Under the pieces are notes generated by a model. The model was not told where the DNA came from. It searched no databases and worked only from the letters and a program-made list of their open reading frames with translations. Source: Sabellastarte sp. h YS-2021 (lineage: Eukaryota > Annelida > Polychaeta > Sabellida > Sabellidae). Taken from it: DNA of 64,000 bases. Location: assembly GCA_964017235.1 (NCBI GenBank), contig OZ024936.1, forward strand, positions 49,279,028 to 49,343,027, in the 5' to 3' direction. Shown in pieces: positions 9,601-53,937 of this stretch. How positions within the stretch are numbered: position 1 is the first letter of the stretch; every line of letters starts with the position of its first letter. The translations under genes and the position numbers were made by a program.

Positions 9601-12456
9601 TGCATATGTTGGTTGTCTGGTGAGACCTTCTCCCCCACCACCCTGCAGTTGAGGTAGACCTTGTGAGGTGCCCAGGTCACTGGAGGAATACTGAATGGTT
9701 GGCTGTCGCCGGCTGCCATCTCTTGACGGGGGAAGCTGAGGTAATGTCGGTTCAACACGGGCAACCAGTTTCTGTGTAGAAATACAAATAAATACATATC
9801 TATCACTTGTTTAATTATTGACTTTGGATTATATGTTTCCTTATATCTGATGTTGTCCCAGCCAACCTTAGTTCTTCCTCCATTCTTTTTTTTTTGGGGG
9901 GGGGGGGGAAATTGGTTGGTACTGATTGGTTGGTAGTAGTCAGGAAATCAATCAAATAAAGCAAATCATATCTTTATGAGTAAAATAAGGAATCTGAGTT
10001 CGACACAGTATGTGAAATTTGCAGTTGGGGTCACACTTTAAAAATAAGACAAAATAATAAAAATTTGTGACATTTTGTTTCAGGTGAGATCAGGGGCTTA
10101 ATTAATGTTCTCACAAAAATCACAAATGTGTAAAAAAATTCAAACAAATAAAAAAAAATAGATGGAAGCTCACTCACTAAGGAGTCTGGGTATAACCGTG
10201 ACAATTTCAACATTTCTTGCAATAACAACTTTAAAGAGAAACTTGTGAGCTTGAACTGGTGAAGCAGAGTTTCTGACGTGCCCAGATCGATATATCGGTA
10301 CTGAATGGTTAGCTGCTAAGCCTTGCTATGTATTGGTTGGAAAAGCTTGGAACAAGTTTCCAGATGTTATGCAATAGTAGAGTAAGAAATCTAAAATTCG
10401 CCAGGAATCTAAAATTCGCCACCTCTAAAACCTCAGTTAATTTTATGAAGAAAATGATGTTTTTGTCTAAAAATTGGTATTTTTCAGTTCAAAAAGCCTT
10501 AACTTATTATACATTCAACAAATCTCACCACAATTCATTTATTTTATTAGTATTTTCACATGTGGCAAATTTCAGATATGTGGCGAATTTTAGATTTCTT
10601 CCTCTACTTGTTGCTTCTTAATAAAGAAGATTTGTTGTGGGAACTTTGAATCTTAAGTTTCATTAAATAAAGCAAAAATCCATTAATTCCATCAAGTAGA
10701 TTTACATTTTTAGCCAAATACTCACGCCATCTGACTGAATATATCCATTCTTCCCCTTGCTTTGACTATATTTGTTGCTTCCTATGGGAATCTGTGCTGA
10801 GAACTTTGGATCAGGTGCCTGCTGCACTCGTTGATTACGGTTGAAGCCTCCATGTTGTGGACTCTGAAAAAGAATAGCCAAAAGTAGGAATCTAGAAGTT
10901 ATAAGGGGTTCTTCTTTTGGTATGTAAAAAAATAATACATGTGAGAATTAGGATGTCAACTGCATTTGTTGTAGTCTACTGTAAGCATATGGAAAATCAA
11001 AATCTCATTTCAGGGGCCCTGAAAAAATATCTGGGGCCAGTATCACAAAAGGACTTACCCCAGAATGAGACTCAAAGTTAAGACATTTGTCTTTAACACA
11101 ACCTAAGTCTATGACCTTAGACTTTGTAGATTTCACAAGCTTTGGCAAAGTCTTGGGCTTACAGTTAAGTCTACCTCAGAGTGGGCTTGAAAAATAAACT
11201 TAAATATGACCTCTATAAATTTTTCTCAACCTTAAAATTTTGAAATGCTCAAAACATAAGGATAAATATATAGAACATCCCTCTAAATTAGTTCTTGGAT
11301 ATTTGTATGAGATTACAAGTTTTCCATTGAAAAACGGCATTTTTTAAAGGACAAAATTGTTTGAAACAAAGGATATAGGTTACCAGTAAAATAGTATCAG
11401 CTGAAAATAAAGGGTCACATTGCATAGCGTAATACTGTAGTTATGTGATAAGCTTGGTTTTGGCTAGCTTACCCTTCGTAAAATCAATTTAAGCCCCAGA
11501 TTTAGCTGACACAAAAGACTCAGACTTAAGTGCCTGAAAACTTGGCTAAGTCTAAGACCCTTTGTGAAACCAGGCCATGGTATAGTGTAAAAACAGGAAC
11601 TTCATCTCTGGGGGCACCCTTTTATAGAAAGACAAAACAATCAAAATTTGAGCCAATTTTGCATCATTGAAATCAGAGACCTAATGCAGTCACAAAAATC
11701 AGAAATGTGTAAAGAATCTCCTACAAGGCACAGTAATAGGTGATTTCTTTACTTGCAAGTTTTACACAGAGTACTGAATTTCGTATTTCTATACATGGCT
11801 CTCAGAAGAGGCAACAAAAACCTATTATTTCAAACAAAGCAACTTCTCTTTGTGTAAAATACTATTGGATCTATGTTATGACAGATGTTCCAATGTGACA
11901 GCTTTGCAAATTCTGTTGACAGAACTTCAAATCTCCAATATCTGAACCTCAGAGCAATATCATCAATTTGTCAACAGGATTGAAGTTCTATCAACAGGAT
12001 TTCAATTTCTGTCAACAGAACTTCAAATCTCTCCAGACCAATTAATACAAGGACTGCAAGTTCTGTCAACAGAATTTGAAATTGTGTCAGATATGAAGTT
12101 CTGTCATGCCATATATACTAAGAAACTCACATCTATCATCTGATGATTTCACACTAAAAAAAAACAAATACAATCCTTACCAGTTTATCCTGGTACTTGT
12201 CATTTTTATAGGAATGTCGTAGTTTTTCCAATACTGTCCACACATCTGACATTTGAAGGTGAGAATTAGCCTTATGTGTTAACGAGTGGGTATAACTGTG
12301 AATAGATGACGTCTCAATGTCCGGGAGACTCTCTATTGACCGAGAAGCGCGCACTTTATTTGAGCGATGCTTCCCCATATTTTGCAACTTCTGAGCTACT
12401 TGTACCCAAGGACCAATATTAGGTTTGTTCCGATAATTGCCTGATCTGTTATTCAT
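543..12456 (-). CDS. DYRK4: DYRK4/DYRK2-like protein kinase, N-terminal part, seven exons (gene runs off the left edge)
   Basis: Class II DYRKs are dual-specificity kinases that autophosphorylate a tyrosine in their own activation loop during translation and then phosphorylate Ser/Thr substrates. Joining 12456-12181, 10863-10726, 9771-9575, 7903-7749, 4247-4128, 1658-1495 and 679-543 gives 395 codons plus 2 nt with no stop; all junctions are GT-AG and phases match (0, 0, 2, 1, 1, 0, 2). Residues about 1-295 are low-complexity and family-specific, with an Arg/Glu-rich helix at about 205-245. Residues 296-350 match the NAPA/DH-box region, and 359-395 start the kinase domain with GKGSFGQV (367-374) and AVK (Lys389). 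The words GLEAKKLD and IIRNKKR look more like vertebrate DYRK4 than DYRK2/3 from memory; the subtype is less certain than the family. The N-terminus is longer than the usual 150-220 residues. The catalytic loop, activation loop and C-terminus lie outside the window. Confidence 0.9.
1050..1275 (-). repeat. tRNA-derived SINE, family 1 (minus orientation)
   Basis: Read on the minus strand it begins GGGCTCGATGGTGTAGCAGT (A-box-like), has GGTTTGAATC (B box) about 50 nt later, and ends with a core CTGTTGAACGCAACGTAAAAC and an A-rich tail. Same family as 52831-53050; its tail core is shared with the plus-strand SINEs at 15463 and 38199. It sits in the DYRK intron between exons 6 and 7. Confidence 0.85.
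1495..1658 (-). CDS. DYRK4: DYRK exon 6: NAPA / DYRK-homology box
   Basis: Acceptor TTTCTACTTCCAG, donor ATCAAG|GTAATGG; 164 nt, phase 1 to 0. It encodes residues 296-350: [19 protein letters not shown], then [18 protein letters not shown], then [12 protein letters not shown]. This is the conserved block in front of the kinase domain of class II DYRKs. The NAPA region helps the nascent kinase fold for tyrosine autophosphorylation, and the acidic DDENG part is the DYRK-homology box. It is the best diagnostic piece of the gene. Confidence 0.95.
1780..2100 (-). mobile_element. 5'-truncated non-LTR (CR1/L2-like) LINE 3' end
   Basis: On the minus strand it ends in a GAGATTAAGTGCTATAAAAG motif followed by AGAATT repeats, the same 3' tail found at 36655-36865, 28425-28485 and 38770-38830. 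The upstream 200 bp matches the 3' part of the 38770-39515 element (conserved CTCATCAGG and TTTAA-TTTGATCTGAA-like words). Confidence 0.6.
2101..4127. other. Intron between DYRK exons 5 and 6, AT-rich
   Basis: No gene or clear element recognised. The sequence is 65-70 percent A+T by eye with short open frames that have no coding character. Confidence 0.5.
4128..4247 (-). CDS. DYRK4: DYRK exon 5
   Basis: Acceptor TTCTATTGTTTCAG, donor CCAGAAG|GTACACAAG; 120 nt, phase 1-1 (symmetrical). It encodes residues 256-295, Ser/Gln/Arg-rich ([20 protein letters not shown]) and ending GAPTPLSPE, which leads into the conserved NAPA segment of the next exon exactly where class II DYRKs have a TPE/SPE-ALK junction. 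Confidence 0.85.
4248..5149. other. DYRK intron, AT-rich part
   Basis: Between exon 5 and the first MITE copy. Nothing recognised beyond poly-A/T runs and a short (TA)n. Confidence 0.5.
5150..5374 (-). mobile_element. 225-bp TA-MITE (family GAGTAAG), copy 1
   Basis: Terminal inverted repeats (TIRs) start GAGTAAGAAATCTAAAATTC and end in the reverse complement; the element is flanked by TA on both sides. Strand is relative to the commonest orientation (copies 7, 10, 12). Sub-terminal CTAAAATTCGCC is repeated about 16 bp further in. Confidence 0.9.
5595..5692 (-). pseudogene. Two decayed look-alikes of the 3' end of DYRK exon 4
   Basis: On the minus strand, GAATACACATCTGTAACTGC then TTCTG|GTAAGA (about 5650-5690) lines up with the end of exon 4 (GAACACACTTCTATGACTTC then AGCAG|GTGAGA), including the donor position. 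A second copy lies 54 bp to the left (about 5597-5634). No long open frame remains. The match is short and judged by eye, so homology is probable rather than proven. Confidence 0.45.
5728..5757. repeat. (TAA)n microsatellite
   Basis: Six or so AAT/TAA units, then a second short block. Confidence 0.9.
6070..6312 (-). repeat. tRNA-headed SINE, family 2 (minus)
   Basis: Minus-strand reading starts TGTGGACTAGTGGGTAACAT (A-box-like) and runs into GGTTCATCACC, then GGTCATCCAAT...GTCTTTCAGTTGGG, the body shared with 57640-57925 and 56680-57010. A run of twelve C (6249-6260) interrupts the head. Confidence 0.65.
6375..6445 (-). pseudogene. Decayed look-alike of DYRK exon 4
   Basis: Plus-strand GAAGTCATAGATGTG and TCACTTGCTGTTGTCTTACT match exon 4 (GAAGTCATAGAAGTG and CCACTTGTTGCTGTCTCACC) in the same order and nearly the same spacing. 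It lies 1.3 kb downstream of exon 4 within the same intron. No intact frame. Confidence 0.55.
7025..7078 (-). pseudogene. Decayed look-alike of DYRK exon 4, middle part
   Basis: Plus-strand TTCCACTTGCTACTATCTCA then CTCCCCACTCCTCTTTTT aligns with exon 4 (CTCCACTTGTTGCTGTCTCA then CCCTCCTCTCCTCTTTCT), about 31 of 37 positions. It is 0.7 kb from the real exon. Confidence 0.55.
7150..7440 (-). repeat. 5S-rRNA-derived SINE, copy 1
   Basis: On the minus strand GAAGTTAAGCA, then TTTGTACTTGGATGGGTGACC correspond to 5S rRNA internal promoter box A and box C. The 5S-like head is followed by a tail (CTAGTGCACTACTTGTGTCT); on its other side is a GAGCTCTAGCGAGGCTTGTG block with a T-rich stretch, common to all copies. 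Confidence 0.75.
7441..7740 (-). repeat. 5S-rRNA-derived SINE, copy 2
   Basis: Tandem with copy 1. GTTAGTACTGGGATGGGTGACC (box C region, minus strand) is intact, while the box A region is altered (AGTTAGCTTGC). The GAGCTC-GCTCACACC block occurs twice at its right side, next to DYRK exon 4. Confidence 0.7.
7749..7903 (-). CDS. DYRK4: DYRK exon 4: Arg/Glu-rich charged helix
   Basis: Acceptor TTATTTCAG, donor TCAGCAG|GTGAGACA; 155 nt, phase 2 to 1. It encodes residues 204-255. About forty residues are almost only Arg, Glu and Gln ([17 protein letters not shown] and onward), predicting a long single alpha-helix or coiled coil, followed by a Thr/Ser-rich end. I do not know such a segment from vertebrate class II DYRKs, so it may be lineage-specific. 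The intron that follows (4248-7748) contains several decayed sequences resembling the 3' half of this exon; they are listed separately. Confidence 0.85.
8248..8423 (-). mobile_element. TA-MITE (family GAGTAAG), copy 2, internally replaced
   Basis: Both TIRs and TA flanks are present, but the inner part differs (176 bp; contains CTTAGGGGGGAGGGCTACTA). Confidence 0.8.
8436..8762. repeat. Two small foldback sequences
   Basis: GAAGATTAGTC (8436) is inverted at about 8525-8541 (GACTAATCTCTTC). Further right, TCCAAGTTTAACCATGGA (about 8657) faces TCCATGGTTTAACTTGGA (about 8688), an inverted repeat with one mismatch, inside a larger pair GATCAAAATTCA / TGAATTTTGATGATC (8589 and about 8748). Confidence 0.6.
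9321..9526 (-). mobile_element. TA-MITE (family GAGTAAG), copy 3, diverged
   Basis: TA-flanked; degenerate TIRs (AGTAAGGAATCTAAAATTTG / TTTAGATTCTGTACTC). Older than most copies. Confidence 0.8.
9575..9771 (-). CDS. DYRK4: DYRK exon 3 (65 codons + 2 nt)
   Basis: Acceptor TCTACACAG, then AAA CTG GTT; donor GAAGG|GTTAGT. It encodes residues 139-203, a proline-, serine- and glycine-rich linker ([10 protein letters not shown], a run of four Gly, [11 protein letters not shown]). Local GC is clearly higher than in the flanking introns, as expected for an exon. The exit phase (2 nt carried) agrees with exon 4, whose first base completes a Gly codon. Confidence 0.85.
9985..10240. repeat. Dispersed CAGTATG element, copy 1
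   Basis: Contains CACAGTATGTGAAATTTGC, then AAAATAAGACAAAATAATAA, then TCACAAAAATCACAAATGTG. The same order recurs at 11600, 24183, 32205, 35490, 46150, 50535 and 55765. Confidence 0.65.
10380..10604 (+). mobile_element. TA-MITE (family GAGTAAG), copy 4
   Basis: 225 bp, TA-flanked, near-consensus, in the DYRK intron before exon 2. Confidence 0.95.
10726..10863 (-). CDS. DYRK4: DYRK exon 2 (46 codons, phase 0-0)
   Basis: A strong acceptor (CTATTCTTTTTCAG) opens at AGT CCA CAA and a strong donor (GATGGC|GTGAGT) closes it. The length is 138 nt, so the exon is symmetrical at phase 0 and could be skipped or joined to any first exon ending at phase 0. It encodes a Gln/Ser/Gly-rich linker (residues 93-138) with no motif I recognise. 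This is the natural common acceptor for the alternative first exons proposed further upstream. Confidence 0.85.
11031..11580. mobile_element. MITE with GGCCTGGTTTCACAAAG-like ends
   Basis: Left end GGGGCCAGTATCACAAAAGG and right end (reverse complement) ATGGCCTGGTTTCACAAAGG are imperfect inverted repeats of about 25 bp, followed on both sides by related TTAGACTTA-type words. About 550 bp, no coding capacity. The target duplication is not clear. Confidence 0.6.
11600..11790. repeat. Dispersed CAGTATG element, copy 2 (no CAGTATG core)
   Basis: Shares AAAGACAAAACAATCAAAAT, GCATCATTGAAATCAGAGACCT and TCACAAAAATCAGAAATGTG with the other copies. Confidence 0.55.
11895..12115. repeat. Degenerate tandem repeat of TCTGTCAACAGAACTTCAAAT
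   Basis: About six imperfect units of 20-45 bp spacing (TGTTGACAGAACTTCAAATC, ATCAACAGGATTTCAATTTC and so on). Noncoding, in the intron after exon 1. Confidence 0.7.
12181..12456 (-). CDS. DYRK4: DYRK exon 1 (start codon exon, 92 codons)
   Basis: ATG at 12456 is directly preceded by an in-frame TAA, so this is the first possible start of this open frame. The exon runs 92 codons to a donor (CTG|GTAAGGATTG) at phase 0. The product is basic and Ser-rich, with an [11 protein letters not shown] stretch that looks like a basophilic phosphosite cluster, and ends in a helical [16 protein letters not shown] segment. I see no known domain. Phase 0 joins cleanly to exon 2. An acceptor-like AACAG just inside the frame could instead make this an internal exon, but it would need a 2-nt carry-over that none of the upstream candidates supplies. 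Confidence 0.8.
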
Positions 12457-12674
12457 TTATAGCAGGCGTAAGTAAGCAAATAGGCAAACTATGTTTCACT
12501 AGACAGTGCACACAACTTCAATATAGATCATTTGATGCATAATAAGAAACATACAATGGGTGAGTACCAGTTTTCGTAGGATACTCATGATCACATAAGA
12601 TCAATAAGAATTATATTTTCTATCTTTCTTAAAATCTGAGTGTTTGAAATGTGTCGGCATTAATAAAATATCAA

Positions 12675-12925
12675 AAGTGTTTTAACATTCCAGTACTCAT
12701 AAGAAATAGAGTCATGCAATTTGAAAACATTCCATCTGTGTTTAAATATCCAAACACTTAAAAGAACCATAGTCACACACATTCTGGTTTATCTAGCTGC
12801 ATGGTCACACATACTTTAACATTCCAGAACTTATTATGAGAAATAAAGTCTTGTGATCTGAAATGTTCCATCTATGTTTAAATATCCAAACACTTAAAAG
12901 GAACATGGCCACACATATTATGGTT
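12675..12925. repeat. Direct duplication of about 135 bp upstream of DYRK exon 1
   Basis: TTTAACATTCCAG...GTTTAAATATCCAAACACTT and the following AAAAG(A/G)AC block occur twice (about 12677-12785 and 12811-12920), 220-480 bp upstream of the exon 1 ATG and so possibly in promoter or 5' leader sequence. Confidence 0.7.
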
Positions 12926-13694
12926 TTTAATAAGACATATGGTCAAATATTTTTGAAATGCTTCATTCATCACCGAGTTTTCCCCGAGTATTTTCTCATA
13001 ATTACCCTTTCACAGTAGTATTCTTATCAAACACCCTCATTTTCAATCTTACAACAAAGACGTCAGCCACACATAAATTTCATGACGACAATGTGCAATT
13101 TCTTTTTGTTTTAAAACACAATAATAATGAATTAAATTATGTTATATCCATAATCAACTCTGGAGTGTCAATTGCTACAACTCTAGCAATATTCACTTTC
13201 TACTATTCCCTTTGATAGCAGACTTAAAAGTTCCATAAAGTAATGTAATTGAAATAATATTCTACAGTACTTGGGTAAAAAGTAGCCAATTCATATATGT
13301 TTAAGCACCACAGGTATCAATAATGTTTAAATTATATTGTATAAACAAAAACTCTTGAGATTTGTAAATACAAGTTGCAAACAAACATTCAATTGTACAG
13401 GTAACTATAAATCAGTGGCTCATAATCCTCTGGACAGTAAGAGTATGACATTTGCAATGAAGTTCTTAAACACCTCTGGGTGTTGCATACACATACGACT
13501 TTCATTAATGATCTGGAATGAATCCGCCTTAAAACCAGACTATAATGGGATAAGGAGATACAAACATATTACAGAACAATGAACTACAAAGAAAAATACA
13601 CTGTGCATTAGGATATGCATTTAATGTATAAAAGTATGGTATCCTGGAACTGTCATCTCTACTGTAGAAATAAAATACATACGTGCACACTTTA

Positions 13695-14070
13695 TCAGTG
13701 ATTATAAAGACCGGAAGTGCGCAGACTACACAAAACAATGCAGTGCGCATTTTTTTGGTGTCCATTTATCTGAAGCAATAAATGGACGATAGTCAATAAA
13801 ACACAATCAAACAATACAGACAAAATATAGTGTGACAAAAATATATGGGAAAAATTATATTTATAACAATATTTATGGATTAATAAATCAAATTGGTCTT
13901 TATAATAGAAATGAAGTCCTCAGGTTTGTACATTATCACCTGTACAAAAAGACGGAACTTCCGGCATAATGGACTCGTGCTACCGTGCTCAACCATTATA
14001 CCCGCTGAAAGTACCAATTCCTTTCATACAGGTCATAAAGTACTCACCCTTGGACTTTATTTCTGCATTC
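13695..14070. mobile_element. Foldback element, copy 1 (ATAAAGACCGGAAGTGCGCA)
   Basis: Starts ATAAAGACCGGAAGTGCGCA, includes AATACAGACAAAATATAGTG and AATATTTATGGATTAATAAA. It ends in a hairpin of AGAAATGAAGTCCTCAGGTTT facing CCTTGGACTTTATTTCT. Same order as copy 2 at 14302. Confidence 0.75.
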
Positions 14071-14149
14071 AATCATAAAATAACCTCAAATAAAGGCCTC
14101 TTTTACTGCGTCCTATCCCTAATGACAGGCTAAAGAACCTCAGGAACAT

Positions 14150-14298
14150 TAAAGGATAAATGGTCATCCATGAGACTCTGTCTTTCAGTAGGGAAATATC
14201 AGTCGCCAAAGCTTGGGCTGTACATGTGCAATAGGGAAAGGTCAAATAGTGCTTTGTGTTCTGTTATAACAGAGATATTGTGCGGAGTATAAATACCA
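14150..14298 (+). repeat. SINE family 2 body fragment
   Basis: GGTCATCCATGAGACTCTGT followed by TTTCAGTAGGG and CTTGGGCTGTACATGTGCA matches the body of 56680-57010; the head is missing. Confidence 0.5.
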
Positions 14299-14301
14299 TT
14301 A

Positions 14302-14630: not shown

Positions 14631-14689
14631 ACAATACAATACTTAAAGAGTAAGATCTTGGTGTGGTCATTTGAAAACTCAGTTTAAGC

Positions 14690-15400: not shown

Positions 15401-15462
15401 TTGACCTGCTTATGTCTCTGGATTCTGATTTTTTTTTCCTGTTCCCTTTACGGTTCTAATAG

Positions 15463-15697
15463 GGGCCATGGTGGCAGAGTGGTAACACACTCGCCTCCCA
15501 CCTCTGAGGCTGGGGTTCGGTCCCCAGCACGGCCTCAGGTGGGAAAGCTGGTAGTTGCTTGCCGTTGGTCGGCAGTTTACAGTACAGAACCCTAACGAAC
15601 TGTATGTACTGGTTTCCTCTGCCCTTCCAACTACCCGTCGTGATATGACCTGTACAGTGTTGAAAGCGACGTAAAACCCCAAATAAATAAATAAATT
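15463..15697 (+). repeat. tRNA-derived SINE, family 1 (full length)
   Basis: Head GGTGGCAGAGTGGTAACACA (A box) and GGTTCGGTCC (B box); body; then tail CGTGATATGACCTGTACAGT, GTTGAAAGCGACGTAAAACC and (AAAT)n. Best-preserved copy in the window. Confidence 0.9.
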
Positions 15698-20228: not shown

Positions 20229-20453
20229 GAGTAAGAAATCTAAAATTTGCCAGGAATCTAAAATTCGCCACCTCTAAAACCTTAGTTAATTTTATGAAGA
20301 AAATGATGTTTTTGTCCAAAAATTGGGATTTTTCAGTTCAAAAAGCCTTAATTTACTATACAGTCAACAAATCTCACCACAATTTATTTATTTTATTAGT
20401 ATTTTCACATGTGGCGAATTTCAGATATGTGGCGAATTTTAGATTTCTTACTC
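20229..20453 (+). mobile_element. TA-MITE (family GAGTAAG), copy 7
   Basis: 225 bp, TA on both sides, near-consensus. Confidence 0.95.
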
Positions 20454-20606
20454 TACATTCAGCTGATTTTTCTGAAAGGTTTTTAATTTGGCAAGATCTG
20501 AGAACAAATATCGTGACAAAAATAACAAATATGTAAAAATTTATAACAAGGCAAGGAAAAAATTTTCTCGCTGGCAAGTGTCATATACTGAGGTGAATTT
20601 CTTGTA

Positions 20607-22886: not shown

Positions 22887-23015
22887 CACATCACTTGTAC
22901 TATACTGTAGTGCCAGATTACTCAGGCTCACTGATAGCGCTCCTTTCTGTGTAACTTCTCTCGCACTTATCGGTGCCATCATGTGACTCCCTTGTGTCGT
23001 TGGCTGCAGTTTCAT
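22887..23015 (-). CDS. Candidate alternative first exon A (43 codons, phase 0)
   Basis: ATG at 23015 (G at -3, in-frame TAA 45 nt upstream) opens 43 codons, MKLQPTTQGSHMMAPISARE then VTQKGALSVSLSNLALQYST SDV, ending at a perfect donor GATGTG|GTAAGT. The codons are visibly GC-richer than the flanks. The phase 0 exit fits DYRK exon 2, about 12 kb away on the same strand. No domain recognised, and no transcript evidence is available here. It could belong to an unrelated transcript. Confidence 0.5.
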
Positions 23016-26168: not shown

Positions 26169-28380
26169 CAGGCCTTGGGTGAATACTCTCAAAAGTATTC
26201 GAATAGGAATATAAATACTTTTGATTTCCATGAATACGAATATGAATATGAATCAATTTCAAAAGTATTTGAATACGAATACTTTTCATTTCCATGAATA
26301 CGAATATGAATATGAATACTTTTTAACTAAACCCCAAAAATATTTCACACAATCATTTTTTTAATAAATCTTAATAAGTTTACCTTTTTGAATTAAATAT
26401 ACAAACATGAAAGCAAAATTCAGTAAATGATGGTTTCAGATTTACATCATATTTGACAACAATTCATTTTTTCTCCACAATCTGAATATTCAATCTGATA
26501 AACTTGAGCTACTCAAGTGGCCTTTTTGAAAAGGGCATCTTAGGGGCATCTAAACATATTGTAATTTAACTGAGATAACCATAATTTTGGAAATCTTCAT
26601 GATGGGATTTCTACTGTTACAAGCCTGTCACAAATATTTTTCACATAATTTTGCCTAAGAAATATTCATATGTGACAAATGTCACTGGTATTTAAACACA
26701 TGTAACCTAACCCCCTATTGTAGCAAAGGCAAACACACTAGCCACTTCAAGGTAGGTAGCCTGGTGTTTATAATTTTCATAAATTTGATAACATAAATCT
26801 TCATTGTGAAAACCAATTTGAATAGAAGTTCTCATGAAATCATTTATCAATATAGAAATTAAACACACAAACTAATTGCATTTATGAGAATAGAGATCTA
26901 AGAGAGGAAGTTATACTCTCAATTATTTTGCTCCAATAGGACACTGTCATTATTATGTAATACAACATTTATTGATTAAAGTATTTATTAAATATGTGTT
27001 GTTAGTTTCCCTATGCATATAATGATAGACAGCAAAATTTCATACTTATATCTAAAACTTGTCAGTACAGGACCAAAAAAAATCAAAAATAGTATCAGAG
27101 ATGCCCGTACCCCACAGCCTGGGGAAATAGTTTTCAACACCATGAGATATAGAAGTAGTAAAACAGTACAAAGATCGGGATAATTTCAGGGCAGTGTCAG
27201 TTATATTAAGGACTAAATGATGTTTAAGTAGAGAAAATAACATGTAAGAGAAACAAAATGTATGCAAAGACAAAGTATTAAAACAAGACAATTCAATAGC
27301 AAGATGACAGCATTAATCAGTAAACTAAAAACTATGATGCACACCTACAACCCCTAAGCAATGTCCCTACCAACTATCAACTTCCTACACTTTACAGTTT
27401 CAGAGATATTGCCTGGACAAAATTTTAAAGGTCAAGGTCACTACGGCAAGGTCAATTGTCAAATCAAGGTCACACCATGACATTACACACCTACAACCCC
27501 CAACCAATGTCCTTACTAAGTATCAACTTCCTACACCTTATGTATACGCTTTCTGAGATATAGCCTGGACAAGATTTTATAGGTCAAGGTCACTACGGCA
27601 AGGTTAAAGGTCAAATCAAGGTCACACCATGATGTTGCACACCTACACCCCCTAACCAATGTCCCTACCAAGTATCAAATTCCTACACCTTACGGTTTCT
27701 GAGATATAGCCCGGACAAGATTTTATAGGTCAAGGTCACTATGGCAAGGTCAAAGGTCAAATCAAGGTCTCACCATGATGTTGCACACCTACACCCCCTA
27801 ACCAATATTCCTACCAAGTATCAACTTCCTACACCTTACGGTTTCCGAGATATAGCCCGGGCATGATTTTATAGGTCAAGGTCACCACGGCAAGGACAAA
27901 TCAAGGTCACACCATGATGCTGCACACCTACACCCCTAGCCAATGTCCCTACATAATATCGACTTCCTACACCTTACGGTTTCCGAGATATAGCCCGGAC
28001 AAGATTTTCAAACTCAAGGTCACTGCAGCAAGGTCAAAGATCAAATCAAGGTCACACTATGATGTTGCACACCTACACCCCCTAACCAATGTCCTTACTA
28101 AGTATCAACTTCCTATACCTTACAGTTTCTGAGATACAGGTTGGACAAACTTTTCCCGCTGCCCGCCCGCCCGCCCATCCGGACACCATGGGTGAAAACA
28201 ATACCCCGACAGCCCTTAAGGGCTAAGGGGTAAAAAGTGAAAAATATTTAATGTACTGAATACCAACACTTTTGAAATGTATTTGAATATAAATACTTTG
28301 CTTTTTTCGCAAAAGTATTCGAATACACAGAAAAGAGTATTCAAATACTTATCAATACGAACATGAATACCCCAGGCCTA
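26169..28380. mobile_element. Composite 2.2-kb element with inverted ends around satellite array 1
   Basis: The left end AGGCCTTGGGTGAATAC and the right end (reverse complement) AGGCCTGGGGTATTC are inverted, each followed by about 100-150 bp of GAATACGAATATGAA / AAAAGTATTCGAATA repeats in mirror order. No coding capacity. The inner part holds the 146-bp satellite. Confidence 0.5.
27300..28150. repeat. 146-bp satellite array 1 (six units), rich in AGGTCA half-sites
   Basis: The landmark ACACCTAC occurs at 27341, 27487, 27639, 27785, 27924 and 28069, giving a period of 139-152. Most units carry TCAAGGTCAC, AAGGTCAAAGGTCAAATCAA and GAGATATAGCC. The array ends at a GC-rich segment (about 28158-28225, GCCCGCCCGCCCGCCC). 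Confidence 0.95.
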
Positions 28381-29159: not shown

Positions 29160-30450
29160 TTTGATTTTAAAGTTCAAGGTCACTATGGCAAGGTCAAAGG
29201 TCAAATTAAGGTCGCATCATGACATTGCACATCTACACCCTTCAACCAATGTCCCCACCAAGAATCAAGTTCCTGAAACCTCACAATTTCCTAGATGTAG
29301 CCTGGACAAGATTTTAAATGTCATGGTCACTACAGCAAGGTCAAAGGTCAAATCAAGGTCCAATAATGAAATTACGCACCTACACCCCTCAACAAATGTC
29401 CCTACCACGCATCAAGTTTCTACACCCTACAGTTTCCCAGATATAGCCCAGGCAAGATTGTAAAAGTCAAGGTCACTACAGCGAGGTCAAAGATCAAATC
29501 AAGGTCACACCAGCCTATCTGACTACTAAGTATCAAGTCCCTACACCTTACGGTTTCTGAGATAAAGCCTGGATAAGATTTTAAAGTTCAAGGTCACTAT
29601 CGCAAGGTCAAAGACCAAATCAAGGCCACATCATGACATTGCACACCTACACCCCTCAACCAAGGTCCATACCAAGAATCAAATTACTGCACCTTACAGT
29701 TTCCAAGATATCGATTTTAAATGTCAAGGTCACTACAGCATGGTCAACGGTCAAATCAAGGTCACACCATAAAATTACACACCTACACCCATCAACTAAT
29801 ATCCCTACCAAGCATCAAGTTCCTACACCCTACAGTTTCCCAGATATAGCCTAGAAATGACTGTAAAGGTCAAAGTCACTATAGCAACGTCAAAGGTCAA
29901 ATTAAGGTCACACTACACTCCCTAATCAATCTACACCCCTAATCAATGTCCATATAGAGTATCAACTTCCTAACCCTTACGGTTTCTGAGATATAGCCTA
30001 GACAAGATTTTTAAGGTCAAGGTCACTACAGCAAGGTCAAAGTACAAATCCCGGTCACACCATGATGCTGCATACCTACACCTCTTAACCAATATCCCAA
30101 TCAACTTTCTACACCTTACAGTTTCCCAGATACAGCCCAGGAAAGATTTTCAGGGTCAAGTTCACTACAGCAAGATCAAAGATCAAATCAAGGTCACACC
30201 ATGACGATGCACACCTACACTCCCCCAAGCAATGTCCCTACCAAGTATTAACTGCTTACACCTTACTCTTTTTAAGATATAGCCTCATTTTCAAACTCAA
30301 GGTCAGTACAGAGAGGTTAAACATCAAACCAAGGTCACAGCATGAAGTTGCATACCTACATCCCCCAACTAATGTCCCGACCAAATATCATCATTCTACA
30401 CCTCACTGTTTCTGAGATACAGCCCGGACAAGCTTTTTCCGGATTTGTGT
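29160..30450. repeat. 146-bp satellite array 2 (eight to nine units, more diverged)
   Basis: Same unit as array 1, less regular, with one unit shortened near 29520 and a local duplication near 29920. It lacks the AGGCCT inverted ends seen around array 1. Confidence 0.9.
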
Positions 30451-31022: not shown

Positions 31023-31184
31023 CTTGGCCCTGTTCAATGCATGCTTGAAACTGATTTTCTTGATGTCTCCCGGTCTTGCTTTGAGAACAGTATATTCATC
31101 TGCCAACTCAATTGCACTGTGACCACACAGGCTACTAGACCATAACATGTCTGTGAGAATCCTTGAACCAGTAGACCAAACCAT
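31023..31184 (-). CDS. Candidate alternative first exon B (54 codons, phase 0)
   Basis: ATG at 31184 in a strong context (AGAATGG), preceded by an acceptor (TTGTAATCACAG at 31189), so a short spliced 5' leader is likely. The 54 codons include SRILTDMLWSSSLCGHSAIE and YTVLKARPGDIKKISFKHAL, a well-mixed protein-like composition, and end at donor GCCAAG|GTAAAG, phase 0. It fits DYRK exon 2. I do not recognise the protein. It cannot follow candidate exon C directly, since phase 0 entry meets a TAG. Confidence 0.6.
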
Positions 31185-32694: not shown

Positions 32695-34070
32695 AGAGAA
32701 TTTAAATACACCACAGTATGTGAGAGTTACCCAACTATGTGGAATTCACCGCAGTTTATAAAATTTACCACAGTTTATGAATTTTACCATTCTATGTGAA
32801 ATTCATCACAGCATGGATAATTCAGTACATTATATGAATTTTACCATTCTATGTGAAAGTTATGACAGTATACATAATTCAGTACAGTATGTAATATTTT
32901 ACCATTTTATGTGAAATTTATGGCAGTATGCCAAATTCATCACAGTATGTGAATTTTACCATTCTATGTGAAATTTATCACAGTATGTGATATTTTACCA
33001 TTCTATGTGCAATTCATGACAAAATACAGAATTTATCACAGTATGTGAATTTTACCATTCTATGTAAAATTCATGACAGTATGCAGAATTCAGCACAGTA
33101 TGTAAGATTTTACTATTCTATGTGAAATTTATGACAATATACTAAATTTACCACAGTATGTGAATTTTACCATTCAATGTGAAATTCATCACAGTATGTG
33201 ATATTTTACCATTCTATGTGGAATTCATGACAGAATACAGAATTTATCACAGTATATGAATTTTACCATTCTACGTGAATTTCATGATAGTATGCAGAAG
33301 TCATCACAGCATGTGAACTTTACTATTCTATTTGAAATTTATGACAGTAGGCCAAATTCATCACAGTATGTGAATTTTACCATTCTAAGTGAAATTCATC
33401 ACAGTATGCAGAATTTAGCAGAGTATATGATGTTTTACCATTCTATGTGAAATTCATGACAGAATGCAGAATTTATCACAGTATGTGAATTTTATCATTC
33501 CATGTGAAATTTATGACAGTATGCCAAATTCATCACAGCATGCAGAATTTAGCAGAGTATATGATATTTTACCATTCATTGTGAAATTCATGGCAGAATG
33601 CACAATTTATTACAGTATGTGAATTTTACCATTCTATGTAAAATTCATGACAGTATGCAGAAATCATCACAGTGTGTGAATTTTACCATTCTGTGTGCAA
33701 TTCATGACAGTATGCATAATTCAGCACAGTATGTGAATTTTACCATTCCATGTGAAATTCATGAGAGTATGCCAAATTCGGCACAGTATGTGAATTTTAC
33801 CATTCTATTTGAAATTCATGACAGTATGCCAAATTCAACGCAGTATGTGAATTTTACCATTCCATGTAAAATTTAGGACAGTATGCCAAATTCAGCACAG
33901 TATGTAGATTTTACCATTCATAGTCCAGAGCATGTGAAGTTCACCAGTCTATATAAAATTCACTGCAGTATGTGAAATTTAAGTAAAATTCACCTGACAC
34001 TACCACAATATATAAACTTCATTAAAATATGCGGTATCTAAGCAAAATTAAGCATAATATGTGAAATTAT
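32695..34070. repeat. Minisatellite, 19-20-bp monomer in 57-58-bp higher-order units
   Basis: CAGTATGTGAATTTTACCAT, then TCTATGTGAAATTCATGA, then CAGTATGCAGAATTCATCA repeat about 22 times. TTTTACCATT recurs at steps of 57, 57, 58, then 40 and 58, so the unit is three monomers with occasional loss of one. Short open frames inside have no coding meaning. Confidence 0.95.
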
Positions 34071-35969: not shown

Positions 35970-36450
35970 AAAAGTGTAAAATTTGCCACAGTATGTGAAA
36001 TTCACCACAGTATGTAAAATTTGCCATGGTATGTGAAATTTGTCATAGTATGTAACATTTGCTATGGTATGTGAAATTTTCCACAGTATGAGAAATTTGC
36101 CATAGTATGTTAAATTTGCCGTAGTATGTGAAATTTGCCACAGTATATGAAATTTAACATAGTGTGTGAAATTTGCCATAGTATTTTAAATTTGCCACAG
36201 TATATGAAATTTGCCACAGTGTGTGAAATTTGCCACAGTATATGAAATTTGCCACAGTATGTGAAATTTTGCCATAATATGTGAAATTTGCATGCAAGGA
36301 AAACCTCCTTCTATTTCCTTGACTTGTGAGAAACTTTTATGCATTTGAGATGTTTTTGACCACATTTAAGTTCCTCAGATCTCCCCTAATGCAAAACTGG
36401 TACAAATCTTGATTATTTATTTTTCTTGCTTTTAAATGATGACCCCAAGA
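35970..36450. repeat. CAGTATG element, copy 6, with an expanded 20-bp array
   Basis: About sixteen units of TTTGCCACAGTATGTGAAAT (35975-36290) are followed by the rest of the dispersed element in reversed order (CTTGACTTGTGAGAAAC, TCAGATCTCCCCTAATGCAA). It shows the array growing inside an element copy. Confidence 0.9.
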
Positions 36451-39743: not shown

Positions 39744-40058
39744 CGGTTCTTGCAATGGGAACTTCTTTCCTTGCACCGTCACACCAGAAATCTCAAATGG
39801 AGTGTTGTGGTGACTCCCTCTTGAGGAGCCACTCAAAGTATGCACATATGCACGGTCCAAACTCATAGCCTCACGATGATGATGTGAAGCTGCAGCTGTA
39901 CCCACATAGTGGTAGTGAGGATAGGATATAGGCAGTGATTCCTGGTCACTCATAGACTTGGAACATTGGCTGGTTGAAACATCAAAATCTTGAGAACTGG
40001 TAAAGGTGGTTTTTCTAGCAAAGAGGTGTTCTGTACACCTTACACCCTTACATATTTG
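39744..40058 (-). CDS. Candidate exon C (70 codons from ATG, or 105 if internal; phase 0)
   Basis: An ATG at 39953 opens SDQESLPISYPHYHYVGTAA through ISGVTVQGKKFPLQEP, ending at donor GAACCG|GTAATT, phase 0. The frame is open further up to 40058, where a pyrimidine-rich acceptor (CATTCTTTGATGTAG) precedes it, also at phase 0; a nearer acceptor (CACCTTTACCAG) has a different phase. It is either a first exon or an internal 0-0 exon fed by candidate exon D. His/Ser/Tyr-rich, no domain recognised. Exit phase fits DYRK exon 2, 29 kb away. Confidence 0.6.
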
Positions 40059-46941: not shown

Positions 46942-47166
46942 GAGTAAGAAATCTAAAATTCGCCAGGAATCTAAAATTCGCCACCTCTAAAACCTTAGTT
47001 AATTTTATGAAGAAAATGATGTTTTTGTCTAAAAATTGGTATTTTTCAGTTCAAAAAGCCTTAATTTACTATACTGTCAACAAATCTCACCACCATTCAT
47101 TTATTTTATTAGTATTTGCACATGTGGCGAATTTCAGATATGTGGCGAATTTTAGATTTCTTACTC
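46942..47166 (+). mobile_element. TA-MITE (family GAGTAAG), copy 10
   Basis: 225 bp, TA-flanked, consensus-like. Confidence 0.95.
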
Positions 47167-47656
47167 TACCTATTTCCAGTCTATTTACAAAAGTGTGCAG
47201 TCTTTTCAGCTGTAACATTTGAAACATTTTAGTGCACTTTTCTTGTTCCACAAAATCGTGTGTATACCCAAAAACAAATCTATTTTAAGAGTCTATAGCT
47301 CCTGTTTATATTTTTGCACAAAAACATGCATAAGCCTGATATTAAAACTTTAAACCGGAAAGTGGCATGGAACGGATTATGGTTCATGAAGGATAAAATG
47401 GTAGGCTGCATAGTGACCATGGGTACGTCTTTTACGCAGTTCCTAAATAGTAAATATATAATGCTAAATAAACTATCAATCGGCCCTATCATTAAACCAC
47501 TCACCCCTATGGACCTTCGTGGTTAATGCAGCCAATAGTTTAAAACCATCATAAAGCACTCACATTTGTCATTATTTTACTTATATTTTATACTGTAATT
47601 AACTGTAAAATGACAACAATAGGCATGGACTAATAATAAGATCAGTGAAGATCAGA

Positions 47657-48529: not shown

Positions 48530-49530
48530 AATTATTCAGAAGGGTCTATCTGGTCTAAAAACCTTCCCTGCCACACTAAATAGTCTTTCTACTGGAGCTG
48601 ATGAGGCAGCTAGGCACAAAAACTTCCTGGCTAATTTGGCAATGCGCGGCAAATCCTTCTCATATTGTCTCCAGGTTTCCAATGGATTTGAGTCTGGATC
48701 TTGTATAGACTATAGACCGCTCCAGATACTTCTTTACTTCAGATAGGGCTGGGGTTGGTGTGGTATTTTGTTTTGGTTGTGCCAATCTCTTAAAAGCAAA
48801 GCCTTCAGCCTTGCAATGCTTGGTTGGTGGTGGTTTCATCTCATCTGTTCTTTCTGGGTTGGGGGTTCCGTCCAACTCTACTGCTGATGTCAGTCTTTAG
48901 AGCAGGGCCTTCATTGATTCCTTCTCATCTTCTTCACACCACTCAAGCTTTAGTTGAGGATCCAATATAGAGGCACACTGAAAGTCTTTACATTTGAGGA
49001 AGGGACTTAGCCTTTTTGTACTGATTCCTTTAAACTACTGACCAAAGAGCAATTAAATTTAACACTGAGTGAATCAATTTCATTGAGTAGATTTTTTACT
49101 ACAGGGATCACCAGGCTGGCAGAAACTGTTTTCTCATTTTGAACAGACAGCGTGGCTTGCTCAAAAGGTGTCAAAATTTCTACCAGTTCATTCAGGTACA
49201 TGCGGTCATGGGATGTCAGTTAAGGGACGTCTAGTTGTTTCAGTTTTTCTGTGGAAATGGACAGCAGTGACTTAATCATGGTAAGCTGACTATTCCATCA
49301 TGTACTGGTTGCTGCCTGGACACGATTTTCTCCTGCTAATAAATCAGATGCTGTGGTAGAACATCTTATGTGAGACACAATGTTTGAGGCCTTGGATATG
49401 ACTTTATTCAAGACACCAGCACTTTTCAGCCCATCTTTTACAACCAGGTGGAGATTGTGACACATGCAGGACTCGCGGTTAAAGGGGATGTACTCGTACA
49501 ACAATTGAACTAACAATACTACACTCTATA
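48530..49530 (-). pseudogene. hAT-superfamily transposase relic
   Basis: Minus strand, in order: CHNLHLVVKDGLKSAGVLNK and IVSHIRCSTTASDLLAGENR; TSHDRMYLNELVEILTPFEQ; CASILDPQLKLEWCEEDEKE; and the C-terminal dimerisation block WRQYEKDLPRIAKLARKFLC LAASSAPVERLFSVAGKVF. This is the layout of hAT/ZBED transposases from the RNase-H-like domain to hATC. At least three stops or frameshifts split it, and the BED finger and N-terminus are absent. Composition is GC-richer than its surroundings. Clearly inactive. Confidence 0.9.
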
Positions 49531-49934
49531 CAACATAATCAGGGCAGTCAGGAGGGAAACTTGTTACAGTATAGTTGGGATACAGGTGCATTATAGGTAA
49601 ATAGGAAAGTATAACTTTCACTGCAAGAATTAAAATGGGCGATATATTAGCTCCTTATTTTAGATGACTTGATTTCTATAATAAATCAGTGGGCTGTGGC
49701 TTCAATTAAAGGTGATTCTACGGGTTGTGAGTACCACCTAACATGATTGCACTGATAACTATTCGAGACAAATTTACACTGTTAATCATTTGAGAAAAAT
49801 TTACAGACTGACTGTGCTGAGATGTTGATGTCCTACTGATGATGGTAATTATTACTAATTGTAGCTGCTACTTTATATCACCTTCTGCAGGTGACAAGAC
49901 CAAGTGATTATGTGACATGTATCTTTCTACTGCA

Positions 49935-50525
49935 ATTAAAGCACACTTGTGATGTCATTCTATTGTTAAAAGTGTGCATTATTTTTAGGTAATGTACACT
50001 TTGTGTTCTAATTTGCAGACACCTGAAACAATCAAATGGTGCCCATTATCTAGTCCAAAAAATTGTACATTTAAAAAAAAAAACCATTTCTTTTCATCGA
50101 TAGGATTACATAAAAATTCTAGTAAATCAGTTGAATTATCCAGTTCATTTGCTCAAAAAGTGTTCTGTGTTATAAACACTTCTGAGTTATAAACAGATTA
50201 TTAGAGTTAATTTTATTCCTGCAATCCGTTTAGAGTAACAATTCTACCGAACAGAAGAACTACACCAGATACCAATATAAACACATGGGCAATATACAAA
50301 GGCCAATATATAAATAACTACGAATCAAGTATATTGTGATTTAGGTTAATTGATTGTCAAGAGTTTTTGAAACAATTCCATAAAAGTGGAATTATTTCAG
50401 GGAGTTGTATCGAAAAGTTTGTGAGCTTTAAGTTCGGTAAAGCCTTCGGGGTCTCGTAAAGTGTGCATTAATATTTTCCCCAGTAAGGCATAATTTTTCA
50501 TACTTTACCTATGACATAAAGTCTT
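49935..50525. repeat. Direct repeat, right copy, with an extra 400 bp inside
   Basis: First 105 bp about 90 percent like 48040-48144. Then 400 bp of unrelated DNA, then GGGGTCTCGTAAAGTGTGCA and CATACTTTACCTATGACATA. Confidence 0.8.
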
Positions 50526-50534
50526 GTACCTTGT

Positions 50535-50990
50535 GAAAAATGTAAAATTCACCATTCACCACAGTATGTGATAGAGTAAGAAATCTAAAATTCGCCAGGA
50601 ATCTAAAATGCGCCACCTCTAAAACCTTAGTTAATTTTATGAAGAAAATGATGTTTTTGTCTCACAATTGGTATTTTTCAGTTCAAAAAGCCTTAATTTA
50701 CTATACGTCAACAAATCTCACCACAATTCATTTATTTTATTAGTATTTTCACATGTTGCGAATTTCAGATATGTGGCGAATTTTAGATTTCTTACTCTAT
50801 TTAGCACAGTATGACTGAAACTCACCACTAAAAGACACCCTTTAAAAGTAAGACAAAACAATTCAAATTTTGTGCCAATTCTGCATCAGGAGAAATCGGT
50901 ATTTGTAAAGAAATTCCGACAATCAGGAAAATAGAAGGCGGTTCCCTAATTGACAAAGTATTACACATTTATTGTGGTAAATTTCACATT
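50535..50990. repeat. CAGTATG element, copy 8, interrupted by MITE copy 11
   Basis: CACCACAGTATGTGA stops at the MITE and continues TTTAGCACAGTATGACTGAA, AGTAAGACAAAACAATTCAA, CTGCATCAGGAGAAATCGGT after it. Confidence 0.8.
50574..50797 (+). mobile_element. TA-MITE (family GAGTAAG), copy 11
   Basis: TA-flanked, 224 bp, inserted in the CAGTATG element, hence younger than it. Confidence 0.95.
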
Positions 50991-51982
50991 TTAAACTCTA
51001 CAACTTTGATCTGTTTGACCATCTGAAGGCCTTTTGTTTTCTGTGGTTGTCATCACACAAACAAACCAAGGAGTTCTGTTCATGTCACAGATATTGTGCA
51101 ATGAGGTTTTATATCATAGTAATTCTAAATCTAATTCTTATCGTACTTTTATTATAATATTTCCTTTTCAAAATGTTGACAGAGGAAGGGTGAAAGACTG
51201 TGAATCATATTTCACCAATAAGAAATTATTTTCCTTTTCCAAATTTCAATGGACAATAATCTATAATATATAAAAAGAAATGGTGAGAAATAATGTAAAA
51301 GTTTAGATTTTAAACATTGCAAGTTTTAGTAATAATTTGTATTTGTTTAAACTGACGCCTTGTCCAAATGCTATGTAATGACTTGATGAAAGAGACTTGA
51401 GAAACCAATCCCTAGGTGACAAGTTAAGGAATATATAAAGTAAAGGATGTCTGTTTACATGAGCATGGGCGATAAAGTGAGCAAGGGTGCTTTGGCAGAT
51501 GAATTTGCGACACATATATTCAAGTGAGACCATATGGTAAAGCAAGCATACTTGCAGAGTTTTCAAATTCCGGAATGGACCAGTATGCCACACTGCTGCG
51601 AGATATCATAAAGCATTTCAGAATTAATTTGTACAAATTAATACAATCATATTTTTACAGTGCATATTCTCTAACTTACACACTCTAAGACAAAGAACCA
51701 TACTCTTAGTACAAAATTTATTTAGGCACTGGATGTGCATGGATTGCAAGCCAAAGACACCAGAAAACCAAGAATCAGTGGAAGAGTCTTGCAAAACAAG
51801 TAGTTTTAGCCCTGCTTTGCAAAAATGTCAGAAAAGAAGCACTATAGGCATTACTGGGCAGTGTACTCTAGGGACTAAGATTATCACAGCAAAGTTATAG
51901 CAAAAATTCACAATTGGCCATAAAGGCAACTATGGTTCAGGAGAGAGACTGTTGTCTTGTTACACAATATGCTAGTGAAATA
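50991..51982. other. AT-rich DNA
   Basis: The stretch 51303-51600 is somewhat GC-richer but has no exon-like signal that I trust. Confidence 0.4.
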
Positions 51983-52207
51983 GAGTAAGAAATCTAAAAT
52001 TCGCCAGGAATCTAAAATTCGCCACCTCTAAAACCTTAGTTAATTTTATGAAGAAAATGATGTTTTTGTCTAAAAATTGGTATTTTTCAGTTCAAAAAGC
52101 CTTAATTTACTATACAGTCAACAAATCTCACCACAATTCATTTATTTTATTAGTATTTTCACCTGTGGCGAATTTCAGATATGTGGCGAATTTTAGATTT
52201 CTTACTC
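51983..52207 (+). mobile_element. TA-MITE (family GAGTAAG), copy 12
   Basis: 225 bp, TA-flanked, consensus-like. Confidence 0.95.
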
Positions 52208-52830
52208 TACACCAGTTGACAAGTATTTCTTGGCACTCTTTTCACATTTCAAATTAATGTCTGACCTTCTCACTTTAGAACATAGAACATATGAATTGTC
52301 CATGTTATATTTTGCAAAAAAAATATGGTAGTGAAATCATTCAATACCAATGGACACTTGGCTTTTAATAATTGAAGTATTTGTGAAGTGCCAAATTGAC
52401 GACAACATCCCCTCAGACACTGATATAAACAAGAAAACTCAGACAGTGCATACTTCCACAAAAGCATGAATAGTTTACATCAGAACCTTATCTCTCTTTT
52501 CAAAAGCAAAATGGCTTAATAATAAGAAAATTAAGTCAATGGGAAAATCCAAGTCTTTGATTCTTTTTATCCAGGTTGTGATCCAGGCCACTCTCAAAAT
52601 TTAATGGGATCTAAGTTGGGCCAAGAACCATGTTTTCACTTATTTTTTTGAAGATCCAATCAGTAGTATTTGTGTAATCCTGCTAATAAACAAACAAAAA
52701 GGCAGCCAAAAAGTTAGTCATGAATTTAATACCTCCTTAATGGAGGTAAAAAGGGAATTATTTGACTGACTGATTAGATATAAACATTGGATGTGGCATA
52801 TCAAAGTAGATAGTTCAGGGGATGGATTAG

Positions 52831-53050
52831 ATTTTTTTTTTTTTTTTACATCACGTTCAACAGCCAGGGTCACATTGTGATGGGTAGTTTACTGGTGGAG
52901 GAATCAGTGCATACTAGTTGGTCAAGATTCTGCACTGTAAACCACCAGGCATTGGCAAGTAACTACCAAGTTTTCAACATGCAATACCCAGGCAGAGATT
53001 CGAACCAGCGACCTCAGAGGTTGAAGGCGAGCACTCTAATTGCTACACCA
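52831..53050 (-). repeat. tRNA-derived SINE, family 1, head cut off
   Basis: Same as 1050-1275; the tRNA-like head ends abruptly at TGGTGTAGCAATTAGAG, joined directly to a MITE fragment. Confidence 0.85.
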
Positions 53051-53051
53051 G

Positions 53052-53169
53052 GCTTTTTGAACTGAAAAATACCAATTTTTAGACAAAAAAATCATTTTCT
53101 TCATAAAATTAACTAAGGTTTTAGAGGTGGCGAATTTTAGATTCCTGGCGAATTTTAGATTTCTTACTC
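53052..53169 (-). mobile_element. TA-MITE (family GAGTAAG), copy 13, half only
   Basis: Only the half next to one TIR remains (GGCTTTTTGAACTGAAAAAT to TTTCTTACTC, then TA). Confidence 0.9.
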
Positions 53170-53859
53170 TATATATGTTAAACCTACATAGCAGACATAA
53201 ATATATTTTGTTTATACACATATTATGAAGCTACAAAGTTTATGAAAATAATTGGCAATAAAAATATTTACTGCGGAGTTTACTTGCTATAATTAATTTT
53301 TAGATGCTTTGGATTGTAAATTTCAAAATTATTGCTCATCAAAATGTAACTTTATACAATGTAATAGAACATGGAGTCCTCAGGTTAGTTGAAGCATAAA
53401 CACATGAAAATACAATGTGTTAAGCAGCACTTGTCCGTAAAATCATTTTTCAATTACATTTGAACCAAACCACCAATTTCCAATAATATAAATATTAATG
53501 CAAGTGAAAATTCAGAATATTTAACTAAAATTAGTAAACCCATTGAAAATTGGATGCATGAAAAGACTACTAACATAAAAATATCACAGATTACCATACA
53601 GTAGATTCCGTAGAAATAAAATCAATTAATGCTAAACTTTAGTGTTGTTTTGAGATTTTAAAATCAGAAAAAAACTCCATAAAATTGGAAGTTAATCATC
53701 TAATGCTGTGGATGATGGAGGTACCAAATTATACAGAATCTATTGTATATTGAATTTTCTAAATTTTCTTTTACATGTAATCTGTAACTACTATGATGAA
53801 AAACATGAGCATAAGTAAAATATAAAACAGACCATTCATGTATAATCTCTCAAACTTAC
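53170..53859. other. AT-rich DNA
   Basis: Nothing recognised. It lies just downstream of candidate exon D, so it would be intron. Confidence 0.45.
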
Positions 53860-53937
53860 TTTTTCAAAAGTAACTGGCTTCATGAACATGTCAGCTGGTT
53901 TAAATTCCCCAAATGTGATCTCCTTTTTGGCCCACAT
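53860..53937 (-). CDS. Candidate alternative first exon D (26 codons, phase 0)
   Basis: ATG at 53937 (A at -3), MWAKKEITFGEFKPADMFMK then PVTFEK, followed by a perfect donor AAA|GTAAGT at phase 0. The short peptide has a convincing mixed composition in very AT-rich flanks. It could feed candidate exon C at its 40058 acceptor (phase 0) or DYRK exon 2 directly. With only 26 codons, chance is not excluded. Confidence 0.45.

What the first reader, a model, noticed from the sequence alone, without database searches (positions are those of the whole stretch)
10726..53937. Phase-locked set of candidate alternative first exons upstream of a DYRK kinase
Five minus-strand open segments (12181-12456, 22887-23015, 31023-31184, 39744-39953, 53860-53937) each start at an ATG, end at a GT donor and leave at phase 0. 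DYRK exon 2 enters at phase 0. Two donors are perfect GTAAGT; two segments have in-frame stops just before the ATG. A single random donor-ended frame has phase 0 one time in three, so five in one direction is suggestive, though I selected them. If real, the kinase has several promoters over more than 40 kb and interchangeable N-termini.
Basis: partly seen in the sequence, partly recalled or inferred. Interest (0 to 1): 0.75.

Follow-up and report, generated by a model that had tools for sequence, protein, structure and literature searches.

The report
Possible alternative starts of DYRK kinase
Upstream of an animal DYRK-type kinase gene, three of five proposed alternative starting exons look more like real coding exons than chance gives and two cannot be told from background; kinases of this family are already known to have alternative starts, so this would be an ordinary though untested example.

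Summary
The gene is a class II DYRK: six exons form a phase-consistent chain running into DYRK2/DYRK3 homology. Phase 0 itself is weak evidence: 11 of 31 minus-strand and 11 of 38 plus-strand ATG-GTAA segments have it. Ranking the 96 ATG starts of both strands by coding score plus donor puts the five at 1, 3, 4, 16 and 18. The top four, all minus-strand, score 17 or more; the best plus-strand one scores 14.1, and at most 1 of 1000 shuffles per setting gives three phase-0 candidates that high. So 12181-12456, 22887-23015 and 39744-39953 are plausible coding exons; 31023-31184 and 53860-53937 score like plus-strand background. 39744-39953 may be internal, fed by an unlisted candidate at 60015-60172. 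No transcripts or related animal genomes were available and the own-genome search did not complete, so splicing to 10863 is untested. DYRK alternative promoters with different N-termini are already reported (PMC7465136, passage): a known kind.

The parts
12181..12456 (-). candidate first coding exon (segment 1), 92 codons, donor CTG|GTAAGG, 1.3 kb upstream of exon 2; in-frame TAA directly before the ATG
   Evidence: 11 of 3178 minus-strand GT sites as good; rank 1 of 96; against: rank 30 of 69, negative score, with a two-strand background and no reward for length
22887..23015 (-). candidate alternative first coding exon (segment 2), 43 codons, donor GTG|GTAAGT
   Evidence: rank 2 of 69; rank 3 of 96; no acceptor above 0 from the in-frame stop to mid-segment; against: rank 8 by length and donor alone
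39744..39953 (-). candidate coding exon (segment 4), 70 codons from the ATG, donor CCG|GTAATT; alternatively internal with acceptor at 39969 or 39996 (entry phase 2) or at 39941 inside it (entry phase 0)
   Evidence: rank 1 of 69; rank 4 of 96; rank 7 of the 16 minus-strand internal exons listed, as 39744-39969; against: rank 10 by length and donor alone
   Evidence: (rank 2 of 96)
   Evidence: rank 16 of 96; ranks 16 to 23 over five scorings; for it: rank 4 of 69
   Evidence: rank 18 of 96; ranks 14 to 35 over five scorings
10726..10863 (-).
9575..9771 (-). DYRK exon, phase 0 in, 2 out
7749..7903 (-). DYRK exon, Arg/Glu-rich, phase 2 in, 1 out
   Evidence: one search found it with acceptor 7897
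4128..4274 (-). DYRK exon, phase 1 in, 1 out; its end starts the DYRK2-like homology
   Evidence: one search found it with acceptor 4247
1495..1658 (-). DYRK exon before the kinase domain, phase 1 in, 0 out
543..679 (-). DYRK exon with the start of the kinase domain; the gene must run on past the window's left edge
   Evidence: one search found it with acceptor 653

Best explanation
The window holds the 5' part of a class II (DYRK2/3-like) kinase gene on the minus strand. Its main coding start is most likely 12181-12456, spliced to 10863. One or two more distal exons, 22887-23015 (ATG-starting) and 39744-39953 (ATG-starting, or internal behind a first exon near 60172), give alternative N-termini by splicing to the same phase-0 acceptor. 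31023-31184 and 53860-53937 are most likely chance open frames. Shown: the open frames, donors, phases and the DYRK exon chain. Inferred: transcription from separate promoters, the junctions to 10863, and any function of the different N-termini.
For: The DYRK chain has five phase-matched junctions, and residues 298-404 of the joined protein align without a gap to a DYRK2 chain. The three candidates rank 1, 3 and 4 of 96 ATG starts on both strands, and within 1 to 4 under four of five scorings. Four minus-strand and no plus-strand candidates score 17 or more; 1000 shuffles per block size (100, 200, 1000 bases) give means of 0.31, 0.26 and 0.08, none reaches four, and three or more phase-0 ones occur in 1, 0 and 0 of 1000. 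A related scan for internal exons has five of the six DYRK exons among its six best on the minus strand, two of the five with a shifted acceptor, and the sixth, also shifted, at rank 12. None of the five lies in an in-window repeat. Alternative promoters giving different N-termini are reported for DYRKs (passage of PMC7465136).
Against: No transcript, CAGE or related genome was seen. No Pfam family reaches its cut-off in the five, and segment 1 has no solved-structure relative at E up to 10. Segment 1 scored negative in the first coding test (-6.2, rank 30 of 69); its rank 1 rests on length and donor, and 2.9, 2.7 and 0.5 per cent of shuffles reach its score. With length plus donor alone, segments 2 and 4 fall to ranks 8 and 10. 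As an internal exon segment 4 (20.2) does not exceed the best plus-strand internal candidates (21.2 and 19.8). The cut of 17 was set after seeing the ranks, and the codon model is generic. Only 3 of the top 4 are phase 0. G+C is raised in all five segments, the two weak ones too, so it does not separate them. Copy number in the genome could not be checked.
Confidence: 0.5

Rival explanations
1. Only 12181-12456 is a real first coding exon; the other four are chance open frames or remnants of other sequence, and the gene has one coding start.
For: It is the nearest and longest of the five and has the best donor: 11 of 3178 minus-strand GT sites are as good, and 5 ATG-first phase-0 frames of at least 276 nt end at a GT there, so about 0.02 expected with so good a donor if the two are independent. 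Segments 2 and 4 drop to ranks 8 and 10 by length and donor alone.
Against: Segments 2 and 4 rank 2 and 1 of 69 by coding score and 3 and 4 of 96 combined, above every plus-strand candidate (best 14.1).
Confidence: 0.3
2. One long linear transcript: a first exon at 60015-60172 (exit phase 2), segment 4 as an internal exon (39744-39969 or -39996, entry phase 2, exit phase 0), then exon 2. One distal promoter, not a set.
For: 60015-60172 ranks 2 of 96; phases match and the joined frame is open; segment 4 scores 20.2 as internal against 17.5 as initial (the first includes an acceptor term, so they are not strictly comparable), with acceptors in the entry phase needed.
Against: It leaves segments 1 and 2 unexplained; the acceptor at 39969 is only rank 127 of 2898 AG sites and that at 39996 rank 465; plus-strand internal candidates reach 21.2; 60015-60172 lies beside a 28-bp tandem array and encodes no Pfam match.
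Confidence: 0.12
3. All the distal candidates belong to something else: a mobile element, a relic, or a separate small gene on the same strand.
For: The window is repeat-rich: 22 per cent of it matches itself elsewhere. The third-ranked minus-strand internal exon candidate, 15502-15649, looks like repeat sequence (that label is my recollection). The 105-residue frame around segment 4 had a sub-threshold match to PF00974 (E 0.0026).
Against: None of the five segments has an in-window copy; the PF00974 match vanishes when the frame is split at the ATG; among the 16 best minus-strand internal exons listed, few strong ones lie outside DYRK to make up another gene.
Confidence: 0.08

Closest known systems
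Alternative promoters and N-termini of DYRK genes (review PMC7465136, passages seen)
   Same: Family (DYRK) and design: transcripts with different 5' UTRs and/or different N-terminal coding regions.
   Different: Here only sequence evidence, in what is probably an invertebrate (my guess); the starts would spread over about 27 kb (segments 1 to 4) or more.
Human DYRK2 long and short isoforms (PMC7658070, passages seen)
   Same: DYRK2 is the closest solved-structure homologue; two N-termini, 601 and 528 residues.
   Different: In human DYRK2 the difference comes from inclusion of exon 2, not from several remote first coding exons.
DYRK4 splice variants (Papadopoulos et al. 2011; only the reference line was seen)
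   Same: Class II DYRK whose variants, by the title, differ in localisation and catalytic activity.
   Different: Paper not held, so its exon layout was not compared.

Membership tests
class II DYRK kinase gene | region before the kinase domain and kinase start most like DYRK2/3 | tested here: met
   Joined exons match DYRK2 chains (best E 2.1e-40) and a DYRK3 chain (1.5e-35) over residues 298-404; DYRK1A/1B and CLK weaker and shorter. Pkinase start at 20.3 bits, below its cut-off of 31.7, with only 35 of 263 positions present. No DYRK4 chain was among the hits.
[quoted passage not shown]
   Named as class-defining in PMC7465136 (passage); its borders were not mapped here.
class II DYRK kinase gene | complete kinase domain with YxY activation loop | not testable with these tools
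   The window ends inside the gene; the own-genome search did not answer in 18 tries.
alternative first exons | ATG-starting exon with donor in the phase of the shared acceptor | tested here: met
   5 of 5, but such segments occur at base rate.
alternative first exons | coding signal above background | tested here: inconclusive
   Segments 1, 2 and 4 yes, 3 and 5 no in the combined score; one search gives segment 1 a negative score and segment 3 rank 4 of 69.
alternative first exons | junction reads to the shared exon and separate transcription starts | not testable with these tools
   no transcript data
alternative first exons | conservation in relatives | not testable with these tools
   No animal genomes are offered by the tools. 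Viral-contig scans for segment 4's frame and segment 1 and a prokaryote-genome scan for the joined protein confirmed no relative, as expected; segment 2 was too short to scan; 3 and 5 were not tried.

The most novel reading that the evidence does not exclude
A DYRK2-like kinase with four interchangeable coding starts (near 12456, 23015, 39953 and 60172) spread over nearly 50 kb, feeding one phase-0 acceptor directly or through one shared exon, so that tissue-specific promoters change the localisation or activation of one kinase by swapping its N-terminus.
Probability: 0.2. Interest if true: 0.4.

Novelty: new member of a known kind. Interest (0 to 1): 0.22.

Why it matters
If junctions confirm it, a class II DYRK of what is probably an invertebrate would share the multi-promoter design reported for DYRKs, and the different N-termini could be tested for localisation and autophosphorylation. 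As it stands it is a gene-model question that one RNA-seq alignment would settle.

Tried and rejected
Phase-locking as evidence was rejected on base rates, with the reservation that among candidates scoring 8.25 or more 7 of 10 on the minus strand and 1 of 8 on the plus strand are phase 0. A first coding score with a two-strand background and no reward for stop-free length ranked segments 39744, 22887, 31023, 53860 and 12181 at 1, 2, 4, 11 and 30 of 69; because the strands differ in G/C skew and length carries information, I went on to strand-specific backgrounds and to five alternative scorings. A simulation z-score was positive for all five segments (0.65 to 2.27) but only 0.23 to 1.86 for the six DYRK exons, so it does not discriminate.

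The sub-threshold match of the 105-residue frame around segment 4 to PF00974 was dropped: neither the 70-residue segment, the 35 residues before it nor an 84-residue part keeps it. Solved-structure matches of that frame, mostly WD-repeat proteins at E 0.42 and above, are noise; segments 2, 3 and 5 were not searched there. Contig scans for segment 1, segment 4's frame and the joined protein confirmed no relatives, which says nothing on conservation in animals. I suspected 5S-rRNA-like repeats in the intron near 7270-7590 from recollection; an Rfam search of 7000-7750 did not show one. Rfam at gathering scores and ARAGORN found nothing in the window.

Papers: PMC7465136, PMC7658070, PMC4883820 and PMC10952393 were seen as passages; others only as search listings.
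Full report
What is there. The five minus-strand segments exist at the stated coordinates; each begins with ATG, stays open and meets a GT donor at phase 0. The gene they are said to feed is real. Six exons on the minus strand, 10863-10726, 9771-9575, 7903-7749, 4274-4128, 1658-1495 and 679-543, join with matching phases at all five junctions and one open frame. Residues 298-404 of the protein joined from segment 1 and these exons align without a gap to a solved DYRK2 chain (E 2.1e-40), and the same stretch matches DYRK3 (1.5e-35), with weaker DYRK1 and CLK matches. It is a class II DYRK; the window ends inside the gene. The exons at 10863, 9771 and 7903 have no homology support of their own and rest on splice sites, frame and coding score. 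None of the six offers a good coding start: the only methionine in the chain is late in the exon at 7749-7903, so a coding exon upstream leaving at phase 0 is expected.

Is five in phase surprising? Not by itself. In 10864-64000 there are 31 ATG-first frames of at least 78 nt ended by GTAA on the minus strand, 11 of them phase 0, and 38 on the plus strand, 11 of them phase 0. Anyone can pick five phase-0 ones on either strand.

Are the segments individually better than chance? I scored ATG-first frames of at least 60 nt with a donor above zero, on both strands, by a generic codon model against the strand's own trinucleotides plus donor strength: 130 candidates from 96 ATG starts. The best plus-strand candidate has 14.1. 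With 1000 dinucleotide shuffles in blocks of 100, 200 and 1000 bases, the mean number at 17 or more is 0.31, 0.26 and 0.08 against 4 observed, and none reaches 4; three or more phase-0 ones occurred in 1, 0 and 0 of 1000, and a maximum of 24.9 in 2.9, 2.7 and 0.5 per cent (one search is the same with 60 shuffles in blocks of 200 and 1000). The cut of 17 was chosen after seeing the list.

At the lower cut of 8.25, which segments 3 and 5 pass, the minus strand has 10 candidates, 7 of them phase 0; shuffles average 2.3 to 4.1 and 0.8 to 1.5, and at most 1 of 1000 per setting reaches 7 phase-0 ones. But the real plus strand has 8 candidates at that level (1 phase 0), so shuffles understate real background there, and segments 3 and 5 cannot be told from it one by one. 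Five scorings keep segment 1 first; segments 2 and 4 stay in the top four in four of them but fall to 8 and 10 if only length and donor count.

Against this, the first coding test, with a background from both strands and no credit for length, gave segment 1 a negative score and rank 30 of 69, while segments 4, 2 and 3 ranked 1, 2 and 4. So segment 1 rests on length, donor and position; segments 2 and 4 rest on composition.

First exons or internal exons? From the in-frame stop to mid-segment, segments 2 and 5 and 60015-60172 have no acceptor above zero and segment 1 has one at 0.2, which fits initial exons. Segment 3 has four, all inside it, at 0.3 to 1.1. Segment 4 has five upstream of its ATG, the best at 39969 (2.6, rank 127 of 2898 AG sites), and three inside, the best at 39941 (3.1, rank 81, entry phase 0); the DYRK acceptors range from -0.1 to 5.5. 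With the acceptor at 39969 or 39996 it enters at phase 2 and is compatible with 60015-60172, which leaves at phase 2; the joined frame is open. A linear distal transcript is therefore a live rival to separate promoters. As an internal exon, though, segment 4 (20.2) is no better than the best plus-strand candidates (21.2 and 19.8).

Surroundings. None of the five segments has another copy in the window, though 22 per cent of the window is self-repetitive. G+C of all five (0.385-0.481) exceeds their 500-base flanks (0.273-0.344); the six DYRK exons lie at 0.402-0.543. Part of this comes from requiring open frames. Pfam finds nothing at its cut-offs in the five, and solved structures nothing for segment 1.

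Relation to the known. A review states that DYRK expression is regulated through alternative promoters giving transcripts with distinct 5' UTRs and/or different N-terminal regions (PMC7465136, passage), and human DYRK2 has two N-termini from inclusion of one exon (PMC7658070, passage). An oyster kinome paper gives five DYRK members, and the passages seen say nothing on first exons (PMC4883820). A search for 'alternative first exons' with 'bivalve' found two papers, neither on this subject by title. That the window is molluscan is my guess from repeat style, from no call. If confirmed this is another case of a known design.

Limits. No transcripts, no animal genomes, and the own-genome search did not answer in 18 tries, so junctions, conservation and copy number are all untested.

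Noticed in passing
60015-60172 (-): ATG-starting open segment with donor CAG|GTAAGC, exit phase 2, rank 2 of 96 ATG starts; beside a 28-bp array (60206-60317, 4.0 copies, 100 per cent matches).
   Followed up: partly
10426-10606 and ten further places such as 52029-52210, 20275-20456, 46988-47169, 5148-5328: A roughly 180-base element, the ten further copies 76-96 per cent alike and in both orientations, one about 120 bases downstream of the exon at 10726; looks like a short non-autonomous mobile element (my reading).
   Followed up: no
15502-15649 (-): Third-best internal exon candidate on the minus strand; looks like a dispersed mobile-element frame (my recollection of such peptides; no Pfam match for 15410-15649).
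   Followed up: partly
27334-28136 and 29163-30437: Tandem arrays with periods of about 121-147 and 284-286 bases rich in AAGGTCA-like motifs; another 146-base array at 59354-59776.
   Followed up: no
32712-33919 and 35975-36291: Arrays based on a 19-base unit, the first also read at multiples of it or near (57, 96, 115, 134 bases), with up to 62.5 copies.
   Followed up: no
39744-40058 (-): Sub-threshold match of the 105-residue frame to a viral glycoprotein family (PF00974, E 0.0026) that vanishes when the frame is split; taken as chance.
   Followed up: yes
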